Below, one piece after another: positions 2,802 to 64,000 of a stretch of DNA of 64,000 nucleotides. The stretch comes from Dryomyza anilis (lineage: Eukaryota; Arthropoda; Insecta; Diptera; Dryomyzidae). The stretch spans positions 72,670,367 through 72,734,366 of the forward strand of contig OX638133.1 in assembly GCA_951804985.1 (NCBI GenBank). The letters run 5' to 3'. A program made the translations under genes and the position numbers. The stretch's first letter is position 1. Every line of letters starts with the position of its first letter. The notes beneath the pieces are model-generated. The model was not told the origin of the DNA and searched no databases. It worked only from the letters and a program-made list of their open reading frames with translations.

Positions 2802-2891
2802 TTACAACCGTGGATCGGTTTTGGCCGCTGAGATGAAGCCGCGCCAGTCGGATCTGCTTTGCGCACGCTGACGCCAGTTAGAAATACCAAG
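2802..2891 (-). pseudogene. C-terminal end of the same RTE ORF, shifted frame
   Basis: Minus-strand bases from 2891 read LGISNWRQRAQSRSDW, then RGFISAAKTDPRL, then TAA at 2802-2804. This is the usual WRQRAQ...W end of RTE proteins. It is one frame off from the preceding thumb fragment, which places the internal deletion junction at about 2892. With the nonsense codon, this copy cannot make a full protein. Confidence 0.75.
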
Positions 2892-3324
2892 CGTTGCCAA
2901 AGATTTTACGGAGAATCTTTCTCTCGAACGCTCCCAGTACTCTCTCATCGGTGGTGGCCAGCGTCCATGTTTCTGCACCATAAAGTAGGACGGGCATGAT
3001 GAGTGACTTGTAGAGCGTTATTTTTGTCCGGCGAGAGAGGGCTCTGCTTCCCAATTGCCTACTGAGCCCAAAGTAGCACCTGTTGGCAAGAGTTATTCTC
3101 CGTTTGATCTCCAGGCTGACGTCGTTGTTGCTGTTTACGCTGGATCCCAGATAGACGAAGTCCTTCACAATGTCGAACTTGTGGTTGTCAAAATCAGCTT
3201 TTTGTCCAAGACGCACGGACTCTTTTTTGCTTGTTGACACAAGGAACTTCGTCTTGTCCTCGTTCACCGCTAGACCCATTCGACGCGACTCTTTCTCCAA
3301 TCTGGAGAATGCTGCGCTGACTGC
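2878..3324 (-). pseudogene. same RTE ORF downstream of the nonsense codon (RT thumb region)
   Basis: Directly in frame with the segment before the TGA at 3325-3327. It reads through ESRRMGLAVNEDKTKFLVS, FVYLGSSVN, LSRRTKITLYKSL and the diagnostic LLYGAETWTL, then RKIFGN. After RKIFGN, similarity breaks and the frame ends at TAA 2878-2880. The expected ~50-60 residues between RKIFG and the final segment are missing, so a deletion with frameshift has occurred near 2891. Confidence 0.88.
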
Positions 3325-5571
3325 TCATGTGCTCCTGCCAATGATATCAATATCGTCGGCATATGCGAGCAGCATGACACTTTTGTTGAGGATAGTGCCG
3401 CTTTGGCGGAGTTCGGCAGCTCGAACTATTTTCTCCATCAATAAGTTAAAAAAGTCGCACGATAGGGAGTCACCCTGTCTGAAACCTCGTTCTGTATGAA
3501 ATGGCTCGGAGAGGTCTTTTCCTATTCTCACTGAGCAACGTGTGTTGCTCAGGGTCATCCTGCAAAGCCTTATAAGTTTCGCAGGTATACCGAACTCAGA
3601 CATTGCGGCGTATAATCGTTCCCTTATCGGAGTGTCGAAGGCGGCTTTATAGTCGACTAATAGGTGGTAGGTGTCGATCTGTTTTTCTAGGGTCTTTTCC
3701 TGGATTAGGCGCAATGTGAAAATCTGGTCTATGGTGGACTTTCCAGGTCTGAAGCCGCACTGATAAGGTCCAATCAGTCTGTTGACGATGGGCTTCAGTC
3801 TTTCACATAATACGCTCGATAGAACCATGTATGCGATATTGAGTAGGCTGATCCCACGGTAGTTGGCGCAGATAGTGGTATCCCCTTTCTTAAGGATTGG
3901 GCAGAGTACACTGAGGTTCCAGTCACTTGGCATGCTTTCATCCGACCATATTCTGCTTACGAGCTCGTGCATGCTCTCAATTAGCTCTTCGCCTCCGGTC
4001 TTAAACAATTCAGCAGGCAGGCCATCAGCACCTGCGGCTTTGTTGTTTTTCAGCCGAGCAATGGCTGTTCTGACCTCGTCATGGTCGGGTGGCGGAATCT
4101 CAACGTCGTCATCAAGTACTGGGGTTGCCGGGTTTGCTTCTCTATCGGTGGAATTGAGGTCATCATCACCGGTCAGCAGTTTAGAGAAGTGATCCCTCCA
4201 TATTTTCAGTGTGCTCTGGATATCTGTCACTAGATTCCCGTTCTCATCTTTACAGGAAGAGGCTCCGGATTTTGAACCTCCGGCTAGGCGTCTTATTTTC
4301 TCGAAGAATTTTCGAGCCTCATTCCTGTCCCCATGCATCTCAATCTCCTCACACTCACGTCTTTCTGCCTCGCTTTTTTTACGCCTGAAAAGTCGTCTCT
4401 CTTCCCTCCTCTTCTCTTTGTATCGCTCCTTCGCAGCTCGCGTAGCTACTGACTGCAGGGTGGATTTGTACGCAGCGTCTTTCTCTGCAGTGGCCGCGCG
4501 ACACTCTTGGTCATACCACTGATTCCTCAGGGGGCGTTGGAATCCAAGCACCTCTTCGGCAGCCGTACGCATAGAGCAGGAGATATGATTCCACTGCGCG
4601 CTTATATCATCGAGAGGAGGAGTGCTTTGTCTAAGCAGGTGTGAGAGTCGAGTGGAAAAGGCTTGCGTTGTCTGTTGTGATTGCAGCTTTCCGACGTCTA
4701 GCTTTCTCTGCGTTTGGTTCCGTACGTTCTTCGCAGCGCTTAAGCGTGTGCGGACCTTGGCTGCTACAAGGTAATGATCCGAGTCCACATTGGCACCTCG
4801 GATAGTGCGTACGTCCATCACGCTTGAAGCGTGCCTTCCGTCAATCACAACGTGATCAATTTGATTTCGAGTTTTTTGATCGGGCGACAACCATGTGGCC
4901 TTGTGGATATCGAAATGTTCGAATCTAGTGCTACTAACTACCATGTTTCGTGCTGCGGCGAAGTCGATTAGCCTCGTTCCGTTATCGGAAGTGTTGGCAT
5001 GGAGGCTAAATTTTCCGATTGTGGGACAATAGATGGCTTCTCTGCCCACCTTGGCGTTAAAATCGCCTAGCACGATTTTGATATCGTGGCGGGGGCAGCG
5101 CTCGTATGCGTTGTCTAGGCGCTCGTAGAAGCGCTCTTTTGTCTCGTCATCTTTCTCGTTCGTCGGAGCGTGTGCACAAATTAGACTGATATGGAAATAT
5201 TTAGCCTTGATGCGGATTGTTGCCAGCCTTTCGTCCACGGGCGTGAACCTAGAGACAAGATGGCGGAGTCTCTTGCCGACCACAAATCCACATCCAAATT
5301 CGTGTCTCTCCGCATGGCAGCTGTAGTAGATATCACAGGACGCTTGTTTCGAACAGCCCTGTCCCGTCCATCGCATCTCCTGGATAGCGGTGATGTCAGC
5401 CTTATATTTTTCGAGGACATCTGCCAGCTGGATAGAGGCACCTTCCCTATAAAGGGTCCGGACATTCCAGGTGCATATCCGTAAATCATGGTCCTTAAAA
5501 CGTTTGCGTGGGTCGTCATCGTTGTAATCGGTCGTTATCCGAGGCTTCTTTTTTGTTTTCATTGGGCGCAT
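3325..5571 (-). pseudogene. RTE-clade non-LTR retrotransposon ORF, endonuclease and reverse transcriptase part (stops early)
   Basis: Minus-strand frame; I choose the ATG at 5571 (MRPMKTKKK) over the GTG at 5607 that also opens the frame. An N-terminal apurinic-type endonuclease/EEP domain (about 30-290) shows RICTWNVRTL, AIQEMRW, LGDFNAKVG and the terminal DSDHYLV. A basic/coiled linker with RRxxRR clusters follows. The reverse transcriptase (about 510-750) shows NYRGISLLN, QCGFRPGKST, YKAAFD, GFRQGDSLS and the catalytic YADD (bases 3352-3363). The frame stops at TGA 3325-3327, seven residues after YADD, but coding similarity continues in the same frame beyond it, so this is a single nonsense change. 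Domain order, absence of RNase H, short 3' region and TAAG-repeat tail fit RTE elements, which move by target-primed reverse transcription. GC content is much higher than the surrounding DNA, marking it as an insertion. Confidence 0.93.
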
Positions 5572-5654
5572 AGGTTTTTTCCGTGGTGGGACCCAAACCC
5601 AACGCACGAACCCTCACTCTGAGGGAGATGCTCGCCACTCACTTTAGCCGACTT

Positions 5655-29044: not shown

Positions 29045-30904
29045 CAAGGATTGACACCTAAACGAATAACGAATTCGATTTCGGTTTTCTTTCTCGTTTC
29101 GGTTTCGGTTTTCAGTTTTTATAACGAAACGGTTTCGGTATACCGGTTCCAAGTTACGGTTTCGGTTTTTGTTTGAAAGTTATTTATTGTCCATATTGTC
29201 TTGAACAATAAAATATATTATACTAATACAAGTACCAAATAAAAAATCACTATAAATCTTGTGATGCGGACGAGACTATTTTAAAAACAATTCAACGAGA
29301 TTGATTTTTTTTAATATATTTTTTGGGCTCTTTTGGTCTGCTAATTTTTTAATGAAATTAAAAGATTTTATTCCATTTTTCTCCGACTTTACGCTGTTTT
29401 TTTTGTCAGCTTTTTCAGGGATTTTGATTGAATAAGTCTAGTTTTACATTTGTCATGTTTTAAATTTTAAATACAAAACATAGTCACGAATTTGTCAAAA
29501 ATTAAAATAAGTAAAATATCCCAGCCTCATAAAGTTTTTATATTTAAACTTGACACTCATAAAAATATATATTGTACAGGCACATATGCAAATTTATCAC
29601 AAAAAAAAGCGATATTTTGTTACTACTTGTGATGTTCAAAAATGGAATGGAACAACAATGGAAAGCGTGCAAAATATTTATGAACGTAAACATGAAGGAA
29701 GATGTGTGTTTTTATTTTTTTTTTGTTTTTCAAGTCTAAAGAATATAAGCATCTTAAAAATAAGGTTTGTGAAGCACTTTTGAAGCGGTAAATAGCTTCA
29801 AAAGTGCTTCAAAAGTCGCATATGCACTGTGTTATCCACATTATTATTTTTGTTTTACTTTTATACATAGTTTTTGTTAATTGTAAAATCATGTAGTTTT
29901 TCTTAAGTTAAGTTCTATGTGCATTATTTCATTTAACTTATAAAACAAACAAAAATTATTATATGATCATTTTCACAGTGTACCTCATTTAGCTGTTATT
30001 GCTTTTTGTGTTTTTTCACAAATCCGTTGTTTCGTTTGAAAGTACAACAACAACAAAAATGCGAATAAAGCAGCATCCATCTTCTGATAGAATTTTTGGC
30101 GGGACATTTTTTCTACCACAAATAAAACTCGTTGTTGTTGCTAACTAGATAGCTGTACTAGATACATACATGTAGTGTGGTGCCATGCGACTGTCTGTTA
30201 TCATGCGTATGTCCATTGTCATTCGTCTGTCTGTTTGTTGCGATGCGATGACACAGGATAACAACGAAGAGTTGTCGTTGTGAAAGTGTGTGTATGTATC
30301 GTAATTCGTTATTGTTGTACTCTTTTCTTTCTGTTACTGTTCGATTTGTTGCGTTTGAATTTGTGTTCGCAAAGATAAATGTTACCCTGCAAGATAGTGT
30401 GTGTGTTCTTTTGACATACGGTACGTATAACGTACGGTTTTTTTAATCTCTGAAGAAAACAGAAATATGCCTATATGATATGTTCCGTATATTATTTAAA
30501 AAATAAAAAAATTTCCCGCCAAAAAATCTATAACAAACATGGATGCTGTGGTCACATTTTTTATAAACATTTTTTTTTTTTAAACAACATGTGAATATTT
30601 TTGTAGCCAGAATTTTTTAATTTTGGAAACCCCAGATTTTATATAATGACATTCAAAAATGTCTTGTACTTTAGAGATTTTCAATAAAATAAAATAATTG
30701 GTTTCTGTCTGTTTTTGTGTTTTTTTTTAAACCGTTTTAAAACCGGTATAAAACCGAAAACGTTTATATCGGTTTTGCATATCGGTTTATATATGATTTG
30801 CGTATAACGGTTTCGGTTTCGGTTACGGTTACGGTTACGGTTTCGGTTTTCAAAATGAATCGGTTTTAAACGAATATCGGTTTCGGTTACGGTTTCAATC
30901 CTTG
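29045..30904. mobile_element. hAT-type element, copy 2 (1860 bp, with nested foldback)
   Basis: The same ends as 20065-20849: CAAGGATTGACACCTAAACG at the left, GGTTACGGTTTCAATCCTTG at the right. The flanking 8-mers TTTTAAAT and ATTTAAAT match at 7 of 8. The outer ~145 and ~250 bp are shared with copy 1; the interior is longer and includes a nested inverted-repeat element (30070-30549). No transposase frame seen. It lies ~140 bp upstream of the putative receptor acceptor. Confidence 0.82.
30070..30549. mobile_element. ~480-bp foldback nested in the hAT copy
   Basis: The left CAGCATCCATCTTCTGATAG-TTTTTGGCGGGA arm is inverted at the right (TTTCCCGCCAAAAAATCTATAACAAACATGGATGCTG): about 45 bp of imperfect TIR. 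No coding. Confidence 0.65.
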
Positions 30905-31045
30905 ATTTAAATACATCTTATTTAATAAAAACAACAAAAAATATAAAAAAAAAACATCATTAATTTAACATGATAAATTTGTCTGTTTAAAATGAATCAA
31001 AAAGTAGTTTTTCTCATGGTATTCTTTCTCTTGTTATACTTGCAG

Positions 31046-31531
31046 TAAAATCACTTACAATTCAATTTGGGAATTTCTGTCTGAATGGAAATGCGACTAA
31101 CGGGAAGCACGCCAAAAATGCGGACAACTTAAAACCAACAACACGAACGAGGTTGGCAACGCAAACAAAGCAATTAAGCGGAGTCAATGTCAGCAGAGTG
31201 ACCAACATCAATCGTAGTAGTAGCAACAGCAGCAGCTGCATAAAATGCGCAAAGTGAGCAGCTGAAAATTTTTCAATTAATTTTGCAGTCTACCACAGCA
31301 GAATAGCAGCGAGGACGACGACAATAACAACATGTTGCAGCAATGACAAATGTTGCTGTCGGTTGAGCAAGATTTGTGACAAAGTGTTTAGCATAACAAC
31401 TAAGTCAGTGGCAACAACAATAAAACCAACAACAGCAGTAACAACAATATCATACACAGCAATAAAAAAAAAACACTAGCAACATTCATAAAATAACACC
31501 AGCAACATAACCACAACAACAAAAAGCAAGT
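31046..31531 (+). other. candidate 5' UTR part of the receptor exon
   Basis: A good acceptor lies just upstream: the pyrimidine-rich run ttctttctcttgttatacttgcag ends at 31045. From there to the ATG at 31532 the sequence is CAA/CAG/GCA-rich, as dipteran 5' UTRs often are. It contains several short upstream ORFs, for example ATG at 31085 running 15 codons to TAA at 31130-31132, and ATGs near 31243 and 31332. If transcribed, these could lower initiation at 31532. The first, non-coding exon would lie upstream, possibly outside the window. This is inference from splice-site shape only; the transcription start could also lie inside this segment. Confidence 0.45.
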
Positions 31532-34500
31532 ATGAGCAATTTTTATAAAATATTGCTGCTGGCAAATATATTGGCAACAACAGCAATTGCAATATGTGGA
31601 GAGCAACAAACAATAGAAAGCGCAAAAAAGCAATTGGTGGCAATTCAAAGTGTTGCACCCGCAATAACAACAAAAATAACACTACAGATAACACCGATAG
31701 TAACAACTACAGTGACAGCAACAATTGCCAGTCTACCAACAAAGCAAAAGTCTTCACAAGAGTCAGAGCTTGTATTGCCAACATTGACAGCAACTCGACC
31801 GCAAGCAACGCCACAAAATGCATTCAATCAGTGGCTCGACAGCAGCAGCAACAGCAATCGCAGCAACAAAAAAGGTCAGAAACTTGCAGAGCAGACTGGC
31901 AACATTCCAACTGGTGCTATAGCAATTGCTAAAGCGGAATTAATGAGTCAACAAAGTAATACGAGCAATAGGAGCAATGGGAGCATTGAAAGTAGCGAGA
32001 GCAACAGCGCAAATAACCACATTCTAAGTTTAAAAACAGCAGCAGTTGCTGCTGAACAACTTCTTCATCGAATTGTTGCACCGAGAAAAAGCGATCAACA
32101 TGAGGCGACCACGGCAAATAACAAACTCATCGAAGACAATGAAAATGAAATGAAGAAAATTGATAGCGAAATTAAATTGTCCGTAGTTGTTGTTGACGAT
32201 GCGTTAAGCAAAGATGATGCTGATAAAAAATTGCTGACCACAAAACAAGTGATTAAAATAGATGAACAGCATGACATTCCTTTGAAGAAGACGACGACGA
32301 CGACGAAAACAAGCAGGAAGCAGAAGGAGTTGTTATTGCGCACCGAAGAGCATTTGCCACAGCAAAGAAGCAACAATGTTTTAATTGGATTGCAATGGAC
32401 GTCGAGTGAAATAGCCGTAGCAAGAGCTATGCAAGAGGCTAAAACTATGCCACAAATGACAGGGAAAGAATTTCATACAACACATTTGGCAGCTAAATTA
32501 GATGGAAGTAAAAAACAGCGGAACGATATGCACAAAAACCCACTGCAAATAGAGCATTTTCCGGAAAACTTGCCAGCAAACATGCGAAACGATGCAAATA
32601 ACCAATCCGAATTCACAAAGAAAGCCACAGAAATTTTAATTGAATTTGGCACAAAGGATGCGTATGAAGTTGGTAAGGATAACAAGCAAAATATTAGCAT
32701 AGTGAACGTGACAGCAACAGCAAATGGGCAACCAAAATCTGATGCTCATCTTGCTGTTGGTGGTGATGTTGATATTGCTGATAATGAAGGAGAAACAAAT
32801 GAAAATATTGTAAATGCACGAGGCAAATTTATGCAGCATATTGCAGAGGAAACTAATCAAATGTATGGCACAGAAAAATCGATAGTGAAGATTGAATACA
32901 AATTAGATGACACACAAAATATGTCAGTTAATAAAGCATTGCTCTTAGACCAAAATGAAATATATGAGAATCAAACACGAGCAAAATATCAACAGAACTG
33001 GTTTTTGAATGGGCAGGTTGTGGGTGCAGAAAATGCAATAAACTCTGTAAATCATACAAATGCAGACTCTGAGAAAAGCACTTCAAAAAACTATGAATAT
33101 AGAGTATTGAAAAACGATTTAGGCAATATTTCCAATGCTAAAATCAATGCAGAAAATGCAGCAGAGTTTAATAAAAATGGGCTTTCTAGGACAGATGCTG
33201 GTCAAAACTTAGTAAAAGTATTGATTTTAAATGTAACAAGGAATTTAAAGGCAGAAGATAACGTTCATATTAAAAGTGCCGAAGTATATGAGATAAATTC
33301 TAGCAAGTCTTCAATGTCACAGAAAACTTCCGACCATAAGAGTAATTTAAAGATTGATGTGCAAAGTAATGAAAATTTGTATTCTGAGAAAGAACCGAAG
33401 GTAAATATGAGTATACCTTTTGAGAATAAAGACAAATTGATTTCCGGAAATATTGCTTTAACTGTTAAACAGAAATCAGATGTTCAGGCAACAGGAAAAG
33501 AAAATACTGAAGAGCAGAAAATCGGAGATCTGACAAAGAAAATAAACAAAACAGATAACCAGAAATATGAAGAACAGGAAACGAAAAAGCAGACAACGAA
33601 AAACTTGAAAATAAGAGATCCAAAGACACAAAATCGTAAAATGGAAGTGCAGCACACAGAAAAGCAAACTATCATAGAGCAAACAACTGAAGAGCAAATA
33701 TTTATAAAAGAGCAGAAAACTAAAGAACTAAAAACGGGAGAAATGGATACCAAACTACAAAAAGCCAAACTACAGAAAACCAAAAATCTAAAACCCCAAG
33801 TGCAGACAACTGTAGAACTCAGAAGGGAAGAGCTGAAACGTAAAGAGCTAAACACCGAAGAGCAGAAAACTTTAAATAAGAAAACGAATAATGAGAATAT
33901 TAAAAATTTAAAAACACAAGATCATATAATGGTATTGCAAAATACAGAAATGCAACCAACCGAAGAGCAAACAACCCAAGAGCAAACAATTAATGAGCTG
34001 ATATCCAATGAACTAATACCCAAAGAGCAGAAAATTAAAGAACTCCCAACGGAAGAAATGGAAATCCAACTGTTGATCACCAAAAAACTGAAACTCAAAG
34101 TGCAGAAAACTAAAACACTCGTAATGGAAGAGCTGAAAAGGGACGAGGCAAAAAACGAAGAGAAAAATGTAGAACTCAAAACGGTAGAGTTGAAAAGAAA
34201 AGAGCTAAACACCGAAGAGCAGACAAATTTAAATAAGAAAACGAATAAACAGCTTATTAAAGATCAAAAAATTAATTACCATAAAATGCAATTGCTAAAT
34301 ACAGAAATGCAAACTACCGAAGAGCAAACAACCGAAGAGCAAACAATCAATGAGCTCAAAAGCAAAATACTAAATCTCGAAGAGCACAAAACTAAAGAGC
34401 ACAAAACTAAAGAGCTCAAAACGGAAGAAATGAAAATCAAACGGTTGAAATCCAAAAAACTAGAACTCGAAATGCAGACAACTAAAGAACACAAAAGGGC

Positions 34501-36302
34501 AGAGCAAAAGAGCAAAGAGCTAAACACCGCAGAGTCCAAAATAATCAGTACGAAAAGGAATGATGGGAAAAGGGAAAGTTATAAAGAGGAAGTTACAAAC
34601 ATCGACCAAAGGCTAATTAATAAATCAATGGAACAAAAACTATATAATGTGAAAAAAGAAGATATTTCATATGCAGAAAATAAAAACTTTAAAACAGAGA
34701 AAGACCTGACAAGAAATTCTGAAAAAGAGAGCCATGAATTTAAGCAGAATTTAAAAGCTAAAATGAATAATTTTGATACAAACAACAAAACTGTGATAAA
34801 TATACCAATGAATTTTACAAAAACTGACCCGATTTTAATTAAAGAAGTCATGGAAAATTTGATGAATTCATCGAACAATAAAATGAGAGCAAAAAATAAA
34901 AGATCCAATGGAGCGCTACGCTATATGAGCGAAACTACAAAGCAAACCAACGAAAACGAAACAAACAATAGAGCAGTTGAAGGAACAGACAACAATTTGC
35001 TTAATTTAGAAAGTTTAAATGAGAATGAATTAAATCGAAATATGAAGGAAATACCTAAAAACAAATTAGAAAAGATTGATGGCATGAGTATTGATGTAGA
35101 GAATATTACAAATGAATCCGAAAGTATTTTAGCATTTCAAGGTACAGATAAATCTACTTTCAATAAAGATGCTGAAGAATTTAAAACCACTAATTACACG
35201 ATTGCTGCTAGTACAGAATCGATAAATTTACCGAGTAAGAAACTCATTAAGGAAGCAAATAGCGTAAATTTAAAATCGCTACAGAATACAAGTAAGGTCT
35301 TGGAAAAAGTAAATCACATTCCAGATATGAGTAGCAACATGACGACTTACAATTTGCGGAATACAACAGCAACACCAGCCATGGAAGCAACAACGGAATT
35401 GCAACAAAATCATGCAGCTGCTGGCAGCAATGCTCAAGATGAAGCAACTAATTTGAAAACCTTGTCGTCACTCACTACAGCAGAAGCAATGCCAAATGAA
35501 ACAAATACCGCAGCAACAACAACACCCGTTGTTTTAGCAACATCTATATTAGTTACAGAAAATCCAACCACAGTTGATATAGCAGAACCACCAATAGTTG
35601 AAACAACCACAATGTTAGTTGAAAAAGCAAAAGTTGCTGCAAATGGCAGAAAAATAACTTTCGACGTGTTGTCAAACACGACAACACAACAGCTGACATT
35701 GAACTACACCAGCAACAACGTAACAACAACATCACTAACCGAAAACAACTACCTGACATTACCGATGCTGTCCTTAGGTTATTTACCAGCAACAACCACT
35801 GAAGCAAACGCAGCAACTGTTGCTACAACTCTCCACTACTTTGACAGCTTCAACTATAAAACGTACTCAACAGCAACAGCAACAACACTGACATTAAACA
35901 CAACACTGTCTGCTTTGGCATCTACAAGTAACCACATTGTTACCACATCCTTCGACAGCAACTCCTTCAGCGCTTCATCCTTCGTCAGTCATTCAAGCTA
36001 CAGCGCCGCCAGCACAACCGCAACACCACCACCACTTCCCTCTTGGCCCGTCAAACATGCGTCTGTCACGGAGGGCGATGTTATTCTGGGCGGTCTGATG
36101 ATGGTCCATTCACGTGAGGACACCATTACCTGCGGTCCTATTATGCCACAGGGTGGTATTCAGGCGCTCGAAGCGATGCTCTACACACTGGATCAGGTGA
36201 ACAAACAACAGCTGTTGCCGAACATCACACTGGGCGCTCACATTCTCGACGACTGTGACAAAGACACGTACGGCTTGGAGATGGCAGTGGATTTTATTAA
36301 AG
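31532..36302 (+). CDS. mtt: metabotropic glutamate receptor-like class C GPCR, first coding exon (partial; mangetout/DmXR-like)
   Basis: Open frame of 1590 codons plus one base before a GTAAGT donor at 36303; read-through would add 12 non-homologous residues and a stop. Residues 1-23 look like a signal peptide (MSNFYKILLLANILATTAIA). Residues ~25-1500 are low complexity: Gln/Ser/Thr/Lys-rich, then Lys/Glu-rich with three ~95-120-residue repeats (~700-1009), then Thr/Ser/Ala-rich (~1290-1500). Residues ~1512-1590 are a conserved class C GPCR ligand-binding-domain start: GDVILGGLMMVH, CGPIMPQGGIQALEAM, then LGAHILDDCDKDTYGLEM. C1534 and C1575 match the first disulphide pair of mGluR domains. 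Known of the family: these are plasma-membrane amino-acid receptors with an extracellular bilobed domain, Cys-rich linker and seven helices; all later parts lie beyond the window. The CGPIMPQGG and DDCDKDTYG wording fits my memory of the divergent insect receptor mangetout (DmXR) better than DmGluRA, but I could not align it. Oddity: the extension is far longer than a normal mGluR N-terminus. Class C GPCR call ~0.92; mtt ~0.65. Confidence 0.85.
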
Positions 36303-36308
36303 GTAAGT
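36303..36308 (+). other. splice donor (phase 1) of the receptor exon
   Basis: The sequence AAAG|GTAAGTG is a near-ideal donor. It splits the codon after Phe-Ile-Lys within the conserved DFIKG stretch, leaving one base of the next codon (phase 1). Conservation stops exactly here: the following residues KCELCVTVSNK have no receptor character and end at TAA 36341-36343. Confidence 0.85.
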
Positions 36309-62891: not shown

Positions 62892-63134
62892 AGGGGTGTG
62901 TGCGTGTTCGACTAAATTGCTGACTAAACTTAATTTTGTCGGTAATGCAGCGTTTACTTTTCAATTTAGCAAATTGTCGAGAAAACTAAATTGAACTAAA
63001 TTGGAAGACATCAAAAAGACATTGGTAAGCGATTTATTAGGTACTTTTAAAATTACCGGTTACCGAATAGCGATCGAATCAAAACCCGTACAATTTAGTT
63101 TAGTCAGCAATTTAGTCGAACTCGCACACACCCT
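62892..63134. mobile_element. 243-bp MITE inserted in the 9-bp satellite
   Basis: The left AGGGGTGTGTGCGTGTTCG + ACTAAATTGCTGACTAAAC and the inverted right end form ~40-bp TIRs with about two mismatches. The same terminal word AAGGGTGTGTGCGAGTTC begins the interior of the hAT copy at 20232. TTTAGCATA monomers resume directly after it. Confidence 0.85.
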
Positions 63135-63635
63135 TAGCATATTTTGCGTATTTAGCATATTTAGCATATTTAGCATATTTAGCATATTTAGCATATTTAG
63201 CATATTTAGCATATTTAGCATATTTAGCATATTTAGCATATTTAGCATATTTAGCATATTTAGCATATTTAGCATATTTAGCATATTTAGCATATTTAGC
63301 ATATTTAGCATATTTAGTATATTTAACATATTTAGCATATTTAGCATATTTAGCATATTTAGCATATTTAGCATATTTAGCATATTTAGTATATTTAACA
63401 TATTTAGCATATTTAGCATATTTAGCATATTTAGCATATTTAACATATTTAGCATATTTAGCATATTTAGCATATTTAGCATATTTAGCATATTTAGCAT
63501 ATTTAGCATATTTAGCATATTTAGCATATTTAGCATATTTAGCATATTAAGCATATTTAGTATATTTAGCATATTTAGCATATATAGCATATTTAGCGTA
63601 TTTAGTGTATTTAGCATATTAAGCATATTTATATA
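63135..63635 (+). repeat. 9-bp satellite TTTAGCATA, homogeneous block
   Basis: About 55 copies, nearly all exact. Variants TTTAGTATA TTTAACATA occur as a linked pair at ~63315-63330 and ~63387-63402, a sign of ~72-bp segmental duplication. The 211- and 195-codon frames on the two strands are artefacts. Confidence 0.95.
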
Positions 63636-64000
63636 ATTTACTTTCATTCAAATATTTAAATTTTAAATTAGTTGTATGGGGTCATTTTCAGCCTGTATAC
63701 GTTTCAAATACCAGCATCGATTGTACCTAAAAAGCAATGATAGGACAATAAGCTGTCTATGAAAATATATATTATTTTTACAATTTTTTGTATCAAACTG
63801 TGACAAATATTCATAGGTCTGCTGCCCTTGGCAACTGCGAGAATAACAACGGCATTAAAATGCGCAGAAATTAAAAATGCCAAAAGAAATAAAATATTTA
63901 TCAAGAGACGGACGGTCGTCGATGGCGCTGACGATTGTGTTGCTGCTAATCGGAACTAATTACTTTTGGGTTTACCATTGACCTTGTGAATTTTAAACGT
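63636..64000. other. unassigned DNA at the right edge
   Basis: No repeat or coding signal recognised. Confidence 0.4.

What the first reader, a model, noticed from the sequence alone, without database searches (positions are those of the whole stretch)
31600..36060. Receptor with a ~1490-residue low-complexity extension before its ligand-binding domain
Seen: one uninterrupted frame from a signal peptide to a canonical class C GPCR ligand-binding start, with about 1490 residues of Gln/Ser/Thr, Lys/Glu and Thr/Ala-rich sequence in between. Known: mGluR-family receptors normally begin the ligand-binding domain shortly after the signal peptide. Inference: a huge, fast-evolving, probably disordered extracellular tail in this fly lineage, with many N-glycosylation sequons (NxS/T). 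An unbroken frame of this length in AT-rich DNA argues that it is translated.
Basis: partly seen in the sequence, partly recalled or inferred. Interest (0 to 1): 0.75.

Follow-up and report, generated by a model that had tools for sequence, protein, structure and literature searches.

The report
Insect receptor with giant swappable tail
This DNA is the upstream one of two alternative first coding exons of an insect receptor gene (mangetout/DmXR); it puts about 1,480 fast-evolving residues in front of the ligand-binding domain, and because related insects often keep a likely protease-cutting site there, one receptor may be made with or without a huge, possibly detachable outer arm.

Summary
Observation confirmed: window 31532-36302 (+) is one open exon, from a signal-peptide-like start through ~1,480 cysteine-free residues to the first 86 residues of an mGluR-type ligand-binding domain (LBD). 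The gene is the mtt/DmXR orthologue and has two alternative first coding exons: A (window) and B, 162 kb downstream (546-residue extension), with near-equivalent LBD starts and the same donor position; the 16 downstream matches are single-copy. In 7 of 8 same-species pairs of public models the A and B isoforms are identical after the first exon, and an ant-like A isoform lies whole on a 6,059-base contig, so it is spliced. Long A extensions occur in flies, ants, bees and wasps, keep their length within families and diverge fast. New here: a convertase-like [KR]x[KR]R site lies within 400 residues of the LBD in 10 of 13 families (2.3 expected; 0 of 5,000 shuffles), not in the next 400; it is well kept in 6 of 12 clusters and missing in most tephritids. 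Best reading: first-exon choice decides whether an otherwise unchanged receptor carries a giant, probably cleavable arm. Gene structure well supported; cleavage and function inferred.

The parts
31532..36302 (+). Exon A of mtt: alternative first coding exon, 1,590 codons plus one base (phase 1)
   Evidence: second copy of its LBD start at G000:C4:72,869,929
31532..31597 (+). Signal-peptide-like start (MSNFYKILLLANILATTAIAIC); MSN-x-YK start resembles P0209 (MSNLYK) and Lucilia (MSKIYK)
   Evidence: sequence; relatives' starts; no predictor run
31598..36043 (+). Extension, residues 23-1504: no Cys, T/K/N/E-rich, no Pfam domain
   Evidence: composition; Pfam (E <= 0.1; E <= 0.01)
33482..34579 (+). 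Lys/Glu/Gln/Thr-rich part with in-frame tandem duplications (15- and 357-base periods), predicted as long helices from a single sequence
34892..34903 (+). Convertase-like basic site KNKR (residues 1121-1124), followed by Ser, 380 residues before the LBD
35648..36043 (+). Thr/Ser-rich stalk next to the LBD (residues 1373-1504: 31 Thr and 21 Ser of 132)
36044..36301 (+). First 86 residues of the ligand-binding domain (WPVKHASV...AVDFIK)
36303..36308 (+). Splice donor GTAAGT, same place as the donor of exon B (GTATGT)
31031..31045 (+). Candidate 3' splice site (TTGTTATACTTGCAG) that would start a leader at 31046; a non-coding exon may lie upstream
   Evidence: sequence only; not tested

Best explanation
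Window 31532-36302 is exon A, the upstream of two alternative first coding exons of one gene, the mtt (mangetout/DmXR) class C GPCR. Each brings its own signal peptide, its own extension and a near-equivalent copy of the first 86 LBD residues, and is spliced to the same downstream exons (supported by gene map, selection on both copies and relatives' models; not shown by RNA here). The pocket-side stretch CGPIMPQGGIQALEAMLYT is the same in both, so the choice of first exon changes the N-terminal arm, not the pocket or the G-protein end (inferred). Exon A makes the long form: signal peptide, about 1,100 Cys-free residues, a convertase-like basic site, some 380 residues ending in a Thr/Ser-rich stalk, then the receptor. 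Most likely mechanism: the arm is a pro-region; a furin-like convertase cuts at the basic site in the secretory path or at the surface, releasing the arm and leaving a stalked receptor. Exon B makes a form with a shorter arm and no such site. Cleavage and function are inferences.
For: Two first exons 162 kb apart, same strand and donor position; 16 downstream matches single-copy and in order. LBD starts 71 of 86 identical, dN 0.11, dS 1.4. A and B models identical after exon 1 in 7 of 8 same-species pairs. P0273: 947-residue extension plus whole receptor on a 6,059-base contig. Site [KR]x[KR]R within 400 residues of the LBD in 25 of 40 A clusters (5.7 expected, 0 of 2,000 shuffles) and 10 of 13 families (2.3 expected, 0 of 5,000); kept 14/14 and 3/3 Drosophila rows, 17/19 ants, 5/5 tsetse, 3/3 blowflies, 3/3 in P0040's cluster.
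Against: No RNA or protein data for this species; exon-2 acceptor not read. Site lacking in B. dorsalis, Episyrphus and Microplitis and not kept in 6 of 12 clusters of three or more rows, tephritids 2 of 7. The 40 clusters are not all independent (four are Drosophila). In the family test the reversed control motif is also raised (6 of 13 vs 2.3; 58 of 5,000). B extensions show a slight excess too (8 of 18 vs 3.9; 45 of 2,000). A basic site can serve other purposes.
Confidence: 0.55

Rival explanations
1. Same gene and isoforms, but the arm stays on: a permanent flexible or rod-like glycosylated spacer or brush that sets where the receptor sits or what reaches it, as proposed for the mucin-like stalk of ADGRG4.
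For: Length kept within families while sequence drifts; Thr/Ser-rich next to the LBD; Bactrocera dorsalis and Zeugodacus have long arms with no [KR]x[KR]R site at all; helical prediction of one part; ADGRG4 precedent (passages).
Against: Localized excess of convertase-like sites near the LBD and their retention in several groups.
Confidence: 0.33
2. Messages begin or splice inside the frame, so that only the last few hundred residues or fewer are translated and most of the open frame is not protein.
For: Models of Ceratitis (P0011, 734 residues before the LBD) and B. latifrons (P0017, 581) start inside the frame without a signal peptide; P0209 has only 549 residues.
Against: 1,504 codons without a stop; 70 substitutions between two repeat copies made no stop whereas 4,905 of 5,000 random placements did; in Ceratitis the frame runs on unbroken to 1,684 residues (P0012); the ant-like contig carries the whole extension.
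Confidence: 0.06
3. Exon A is an orphan: a partial duplicate or a separate short secreted protein that is never joined to the receptor.
For: It lies 178 kb from the next shared exon; databases list similar exons as separate genes ('serine-rich adhesin for platelets-like', 'uncharacterized').
Against: Purifying selection on the LBD start, 97-98% LBD-start identity to tephritids and blowflies, a good donor, and joined A isoforms in relatives.
Confidence: 0.03

Closest known systems
DmXR / mangetout (mtt), insect mGluR-like receptor (PMC2695807, PMC3646046, PMC10815649: passages seen)
   Same: Same gene by sequence: LBD, cysteine-rich domain and 7TM; the two Arg of mGluR2 in CGPVNEHRGIQR are Gly and Ala here, in line with the altered pocket described for DmXR.
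   Different: The passages I saw mention no isoforms of the receptor, second first exon or long extension; here there are two first coding exons with 1,482- and about 520-residue arms.
Vertebrate mGluRs (mGluR2 and others, PDB matches)
   Same: LBD start aligned over 86 residues.
   Different: LBD begins near the mature N-terminus; no such arm (PDB constructs and recalled).
ADGRG4 (GPR112), adhesion GPCR with a mucin-like stalk in an extracellular region of over 2,700 residues (PMC10687090, passages)
   Same: Huge, probably disordered extracellular stretch on a GPCR.
   Different: Adhesion class; has a folded domain at the tip; no alternative first exon involved as far as I saw.
GPR37 and BAI1 (ADGRB1): GPCRs with N-terminal cleavage (PMC9000135 passages; PMC13197933 passages and reference titles)
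   Same: N-terminus cut by furin/ADAM10 (GPR37) or a convertase cascade (BAI1), fragment released.
   Different: Not class C; cleavage measured there, only inferred here, and linked here mainly to one of two first exons.

Membership tests
Class C GPCR of the mGluR/DmXR (mtt) kind | LBD, cysteine-rich domain and 7TM encoded by one gene | tested here: met
   Receptor P0072 matches along C4 in order over residues 89-1006; 7tm_3 and ANF_receptor hits there; relative P0022 has ANF_receptor, NCD3G and 7tm_3
Class C GPCR of the mGluR/DmXR (mtt) kind | Pocket residues for the glutamate side chain altered | tested here: met
   mGluR2 CGPVNEHRGIQRLEAM vs CGPIMPQGGIQALEAM here, two Arg lost; that these Arg bind glutamate is recalled
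Class C GPCR of the mGluR/DmXR (mtt) kind | LBD soon after the signal peptide (usual, not defining for mtt) | tested here: not met
   1,482 residues in between in exon A, about 520 in exon B
Class C GPCR of the mGluR/DmXR (mtt) kind | L-canavanine response and Gi/o coupling | not testable with these tools
   needs cells; reported for DmXR (passages)
Gene with alternative first exons | Two first exons, one set of downstream exons | tested here: met
Gene with alternative first exons | Both first exons spliced to the same second exon | tested here: inconclusive
   relatives' models: 7 of 8 same-species pairs identical after exon 1; no RNA for this species
Convertase-processed GPCR | Basic convertase motif in the extracellular N-terminus | tested here: met
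   KNKR at 34892-34903, with the exceptions given
Convertase-processed GPCR | Measured cleavage | not testable with these tools
   needs protein
Adhesion GPCR | GAIN domain and adhesion modules | tested here: not met
   no Pfam domain in the extension; P0022 shows only ANF_receptor, NCD3G, 7tm_3

The most novel reading that the evidence does not exclude
The mtt A message makes two products: a convertase cut releases a secreted, Cys-free polypeptide of about 1,100 residues and leaves a stalked class C receptor. Insects switch this on or off by choosing between two first exons kept as a pair in flies and Hymenoptera (and, less typed, beetles), with the LBD start carried twice so that the arm can be swapped without touching the pocket. 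The released arm would be a fast-evolving extracellular factor of its own (pro-domain, matrix component or ligand).
Probability: 0.28. Interest if true: 0.82.

Novelty: new variant of a known kind. Interest (0 to 1): 0.64.

Why it matters
The natural role of DmXR/mtt is disputed: PMC3646046 supports it as the L-canavanine receptor and notes a conflicting report (passages). If insects make two forms that differ by an arm that can exceed the receptor itself, and one form is cut, then work with one cDNA has tested only part of the gene, and the conflict becomes testable isoform by isoform. It would also be, to my knowledge, the first class C GPCR with a convertase-processed giant pro-region, and a case where the start of a conserved domain is carried twice as a cassette so that an N-terminal arm can be swapped. 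Databases often split or misname the exon, so it is easily overlooked.

Tried and rejected
Rejected: dispersed repeat; chance open frame; sequon enrichment (not significant); a second complete mtt gene. Homology of the window extension to other listed extensions: no hit at E 1e-2 with composition correction, best E 0.34 at a loose setting; without correction long matches at about 20% identity appear, which I take as composition. dN/dS inside the extension as proof of protein-level selection: weak (repeat copies dN 0.27, dS 0.37; 41 amino-acid differences vs 46.5 expected, 218 of 5,000 as low).

One ancient origin of exon A is not shown. In flies A is one clade (100/91), but hymenopteran A and B copies group together; A of both orders held as one clade is 28.6 lnL worse, AU p 0.07. 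Concerted evolution or separate duplications stay open. The H/E residues I used to type A and B do not work everywhere: both Tribolium copies and both Clunio copies are KEA, and the beetle Nicrophorus has an 845-residue extension on a REA type.

Dropped as evidence: barnacle P0010 (its two copies repeat exons 1 and 2 alike; probably a model or assembly artefact); Macrosteles (two diverged genes); Panulirus P0260/P0274 (752 vs 82 residues; the first 118 residues after the joint identical, later blocks not all; unresolved); Anopheles P0070 and P0092 (models fused with INO80). The tree used 100 rows: named rows, the two of this genome and one outgroup; unnamed rows and P0010 were left out. The A set was 114 of 125 H-type rows (extensions of 250 or more, first copies), the B set 64 of 158. 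Homologue lists show only the best 120 of 350, 391 and 401 hits, and each search's length limits bias extension lengths, so counts are of what was listed. Ant AlphaFold model: mean pLDDT 30.5, but the LBD fragment meant as inner control also had block means of only 31-50, so it supports disorder weakly.

Literature: ten searches (open-licence PMC only) showed me nothing on two mtt first exons or a long extension. I saw listings, and passages of six papers; no paper was read whole.
Full report
What is there. Window 31532-36302 on the plus strand is one exon: ATG, a signal-peptide-like start, 1,482 residues without a cysteine, then 86 residues of a class C ligand-binding domain (LBD) ending at a GTAAGT donor. 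The other plus frames hold 130 and 141 stops, and in 3,000 simulated sequences of the same composition the longest open run was 262 codons. The LBD part matches mGluR2 and other mGluR chains by sequence.

One gene, two first coding exons. Searching the 656-Mb assembly with the LBD-start DNA finds a second copy 163.5 kb downstream on the same strand. That copy, exon B (G000:C4:72,868,291-72,870,187; L003:5292-7188), has the same layout: signal-peptide-like start, in all 546 residues before the LBD, rich in His, Gln and Glu, and the same 86-residue LBD start with its donor at the same place. The rest of the receptor is found once: a search with the Anastrepha receptor P0072 gives exon A, exon B and 16 further matches in order on the same strand, 72,884,963 to 72,961,791; the other 5 of 23 matches lie elsewhere at 34-54% identity. 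The gene thus spans about 260 kb and only the first coding exon is doubled. The two LBD starts share 71 of 86 residues, dN 0.11 against dS 1.4, and 39 of 57 nucleotide differences are at third positions: both have been kept as parts of a working domain. Exon B groups with that of Teleopsis (100/96), so the source is probably an acalyptrate fly. A possible 3' splice site at 31045 means that a non-coding exon may precede exon A.

Joined to the receptor in relatives. Public models of Bactrocera dorsalis (2,596 aa), B. neohumeralis (2,579) and Zeugodacus cucurbitae (2,461) carry 1,436-1,582 residues before the LBD and the receptor behind it (domains of P0022). Of 8 same-species A/B pairs compared, 7 are identical to the last residue after the first exon (860-948 residues); in the eighth, B. 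latifrons, the A model is shorter (647 vs 932) with all its residues matching. In Polyergus ants the A isoform has 945 residues before the LBD and the B isoform 104. The unnamed ant-like protein P0273 (82% identical to ant A isoforms) has 947 residues, then the whole receptor: 1,894 codons on a contig of 6,059 bases. The homologous coding sequence here is scattered over at least 17 places, so that contig must be a spliced message. This is the best evidence that such arms are transcribed together with the receptor. There are no RNA data for this species. Some models, Ceratitis P0011 and B. latifrons P0017, start inside the frame.

How it evolves. Within families the arm roughly keeps its length and loses its sequence: 58% identity against 96% for the rest of the receptor between Bactrocera dorsalis and Zeugodacus, 46% against 91% between Polyergus and Linepithema, 35% against 90% between Drosophila santomea and D. 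miranda. The window arm finds no relative among the listed ones at E 1e-2. Among typed same-species pairs exon A has the longer extension in 11 of 12 (exception D. madeirensis, 159 vs 260; the thirteenth pair, Tribolium, cannot be typed). Part of the arm (33482-34579) grew by in-frame duplication with 15- and 357-base periods. Between two 98-codon copies 70 substitutions made no stop, whereas 4,905 of 5,000 random placements of the same substitutions did; constraint on the amino acids themselves is weak. Single-sequence AlphaFold2 draws this part as long helices (mean pLDDT 74.5); for K/E-rich sequence I do not lean on that. An ant arm modelled with 21 sequences stays near pLDDT 30, weak support for disorder.

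A cutting site. Scanning for proprotein-convertase motifs gave the unexpected result. [KR]x[KR]R occurs in the last 400 residues before the LBD in 25 of 40 A-type clusters against 5.7 expected from shuffling the same residues (0 of 2,000 as high); the reversed motif (7 vs 5.7) and [KR]x[KR]K (10 vs 7.9) show no clear excess. Four of those clusters are Drosophila, so they are not all independent. With one representative per family it is 10 of 13 against 2.3 (0 of 5,000), and in the next 400 residues outward 4 of 10 against 3.7, so the excess sits near the LBD; there, however, the reversed motif is raised too (6 of 13 vs 2.3; 58 of 5,000). Of 12 clusters with three or more rows, 6 keep the site in one column: 14 of 14 and 3 of 3 Drosophila rows (KTKR), 17 of 19 ants (RYKR), 5 of 5 tsetse, 3 of 3 blowflies and 3 of 3 in the unnamed P0040 cluster; the other 6 do not, among them tephritids (2 of 7) and a bee cluster (2 of 7). 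B-type extensions show a slight excess (8 of 18 vs 3.9, 45 of 2,000; 5 vs 2.6 in the last 250, 201 of 2,000). In the window the site is KNKR, then Ser, at 34892-34903, 380 residues before the LBD; exon B has none. As the arm has no cysteine, a cut fragment could not stay disulfide-linked.

How it probably works. Supported: two first coding exons, one receptor, long A arms in several insect families, a localized basic site in most of them. Inferred: first-exon choice selects the arm; the stretch CGPIMPQGGIQALEAMLYT is the same in both exons, so pocket and G-protein ends are likely unchanged; a furin-like enzyme removes most of the arm and leaves a Thr/Ser-rich stalk. A permanent spacer is the main rival and may hold at least for Bactrocera dorsalis and Zeugodacus, which lack the site.

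Age. Paired first exons are seen in Diptera and Hymenoptera and, with both copies of one type, in Tribolium (353 vs 68 residues). Of 9 models that contain two LBD starts, 6 clearly have the A type upstream, as here, and Thrips probably. In one search the lepidopteran models listed have extensions of 15-242 residues, chelicerates 31-127 except dust mites (193 and 455), crustaceans 33-135 except Panulirus P0260 (752). Whether A arose once is unresolved.

Against what is known. It is of the DmXR/mtt kind by the sequence features tested. What I did not find described is the doubled first coding exon with a giant, often site-bearing arm; my ten searches (listed in Tried and rejected) cover open-licence papers only, and genome databases may hold notes on it. 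Public gene models already contain long isoforms, under names such as 'uncharacterized protein' or 'serine-rich adhesin for platelets-like'.

Noticed in passing
window 2878-5613 (-): Retrotransposon-like stretch: a 762-codon frame with endonuclease and reverse transcriptase domains (Exo_endo_phos, RVT_1) and a second open frame of 148 codons next to it.
   Followed up: partly
L003 5292-7188 (exon B): Fly B extensions keep motifs near the LBD, such as RSGRHRGR and K-x-FRSLPD/E, seen in tephritids, blowflies, tsetse and Teleopsis and in variant form in Drosophila and here; A extensions showed no such shared motif by eye.
   Followed up: partly
G000 C30:236490-237482 and C6:38541247-38542135: Parts of another mGluR-type receptor: the LBD on contig C30 and 7TM exons on C6; whether they are one gene split by the assembly was not checked.
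   Followed up: no
public models P0014, P0124, P0115, P0070, P0092: First exons of this gene are filed under misleading names: serine-rich adhesin for platelets-like, involucrin-like, DDB_G0286591-like, or fused with INO80.
   Followed up: no
P0260 and P0274 (Panulirus ornatus, same contig): A spiny lobster shows models with 752- and 82-residue extensions whose first 118 residues after the joint are identical; two genes or two first exons is open.
   Followed up: partly
window 63060-63650: Simple tandem repeat open in several frames on both strands (reads as FSIFSI, YLAYLA, NMLNML); a similar repeat (NEFNEF/MNLMNL) lies in L033 near the exon at 72,894,168.
   Followed up: no
window 30780-30900: Tract of CGGTTT/CGGTTA-like repeats upstream of exon A.
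   Followed up: no
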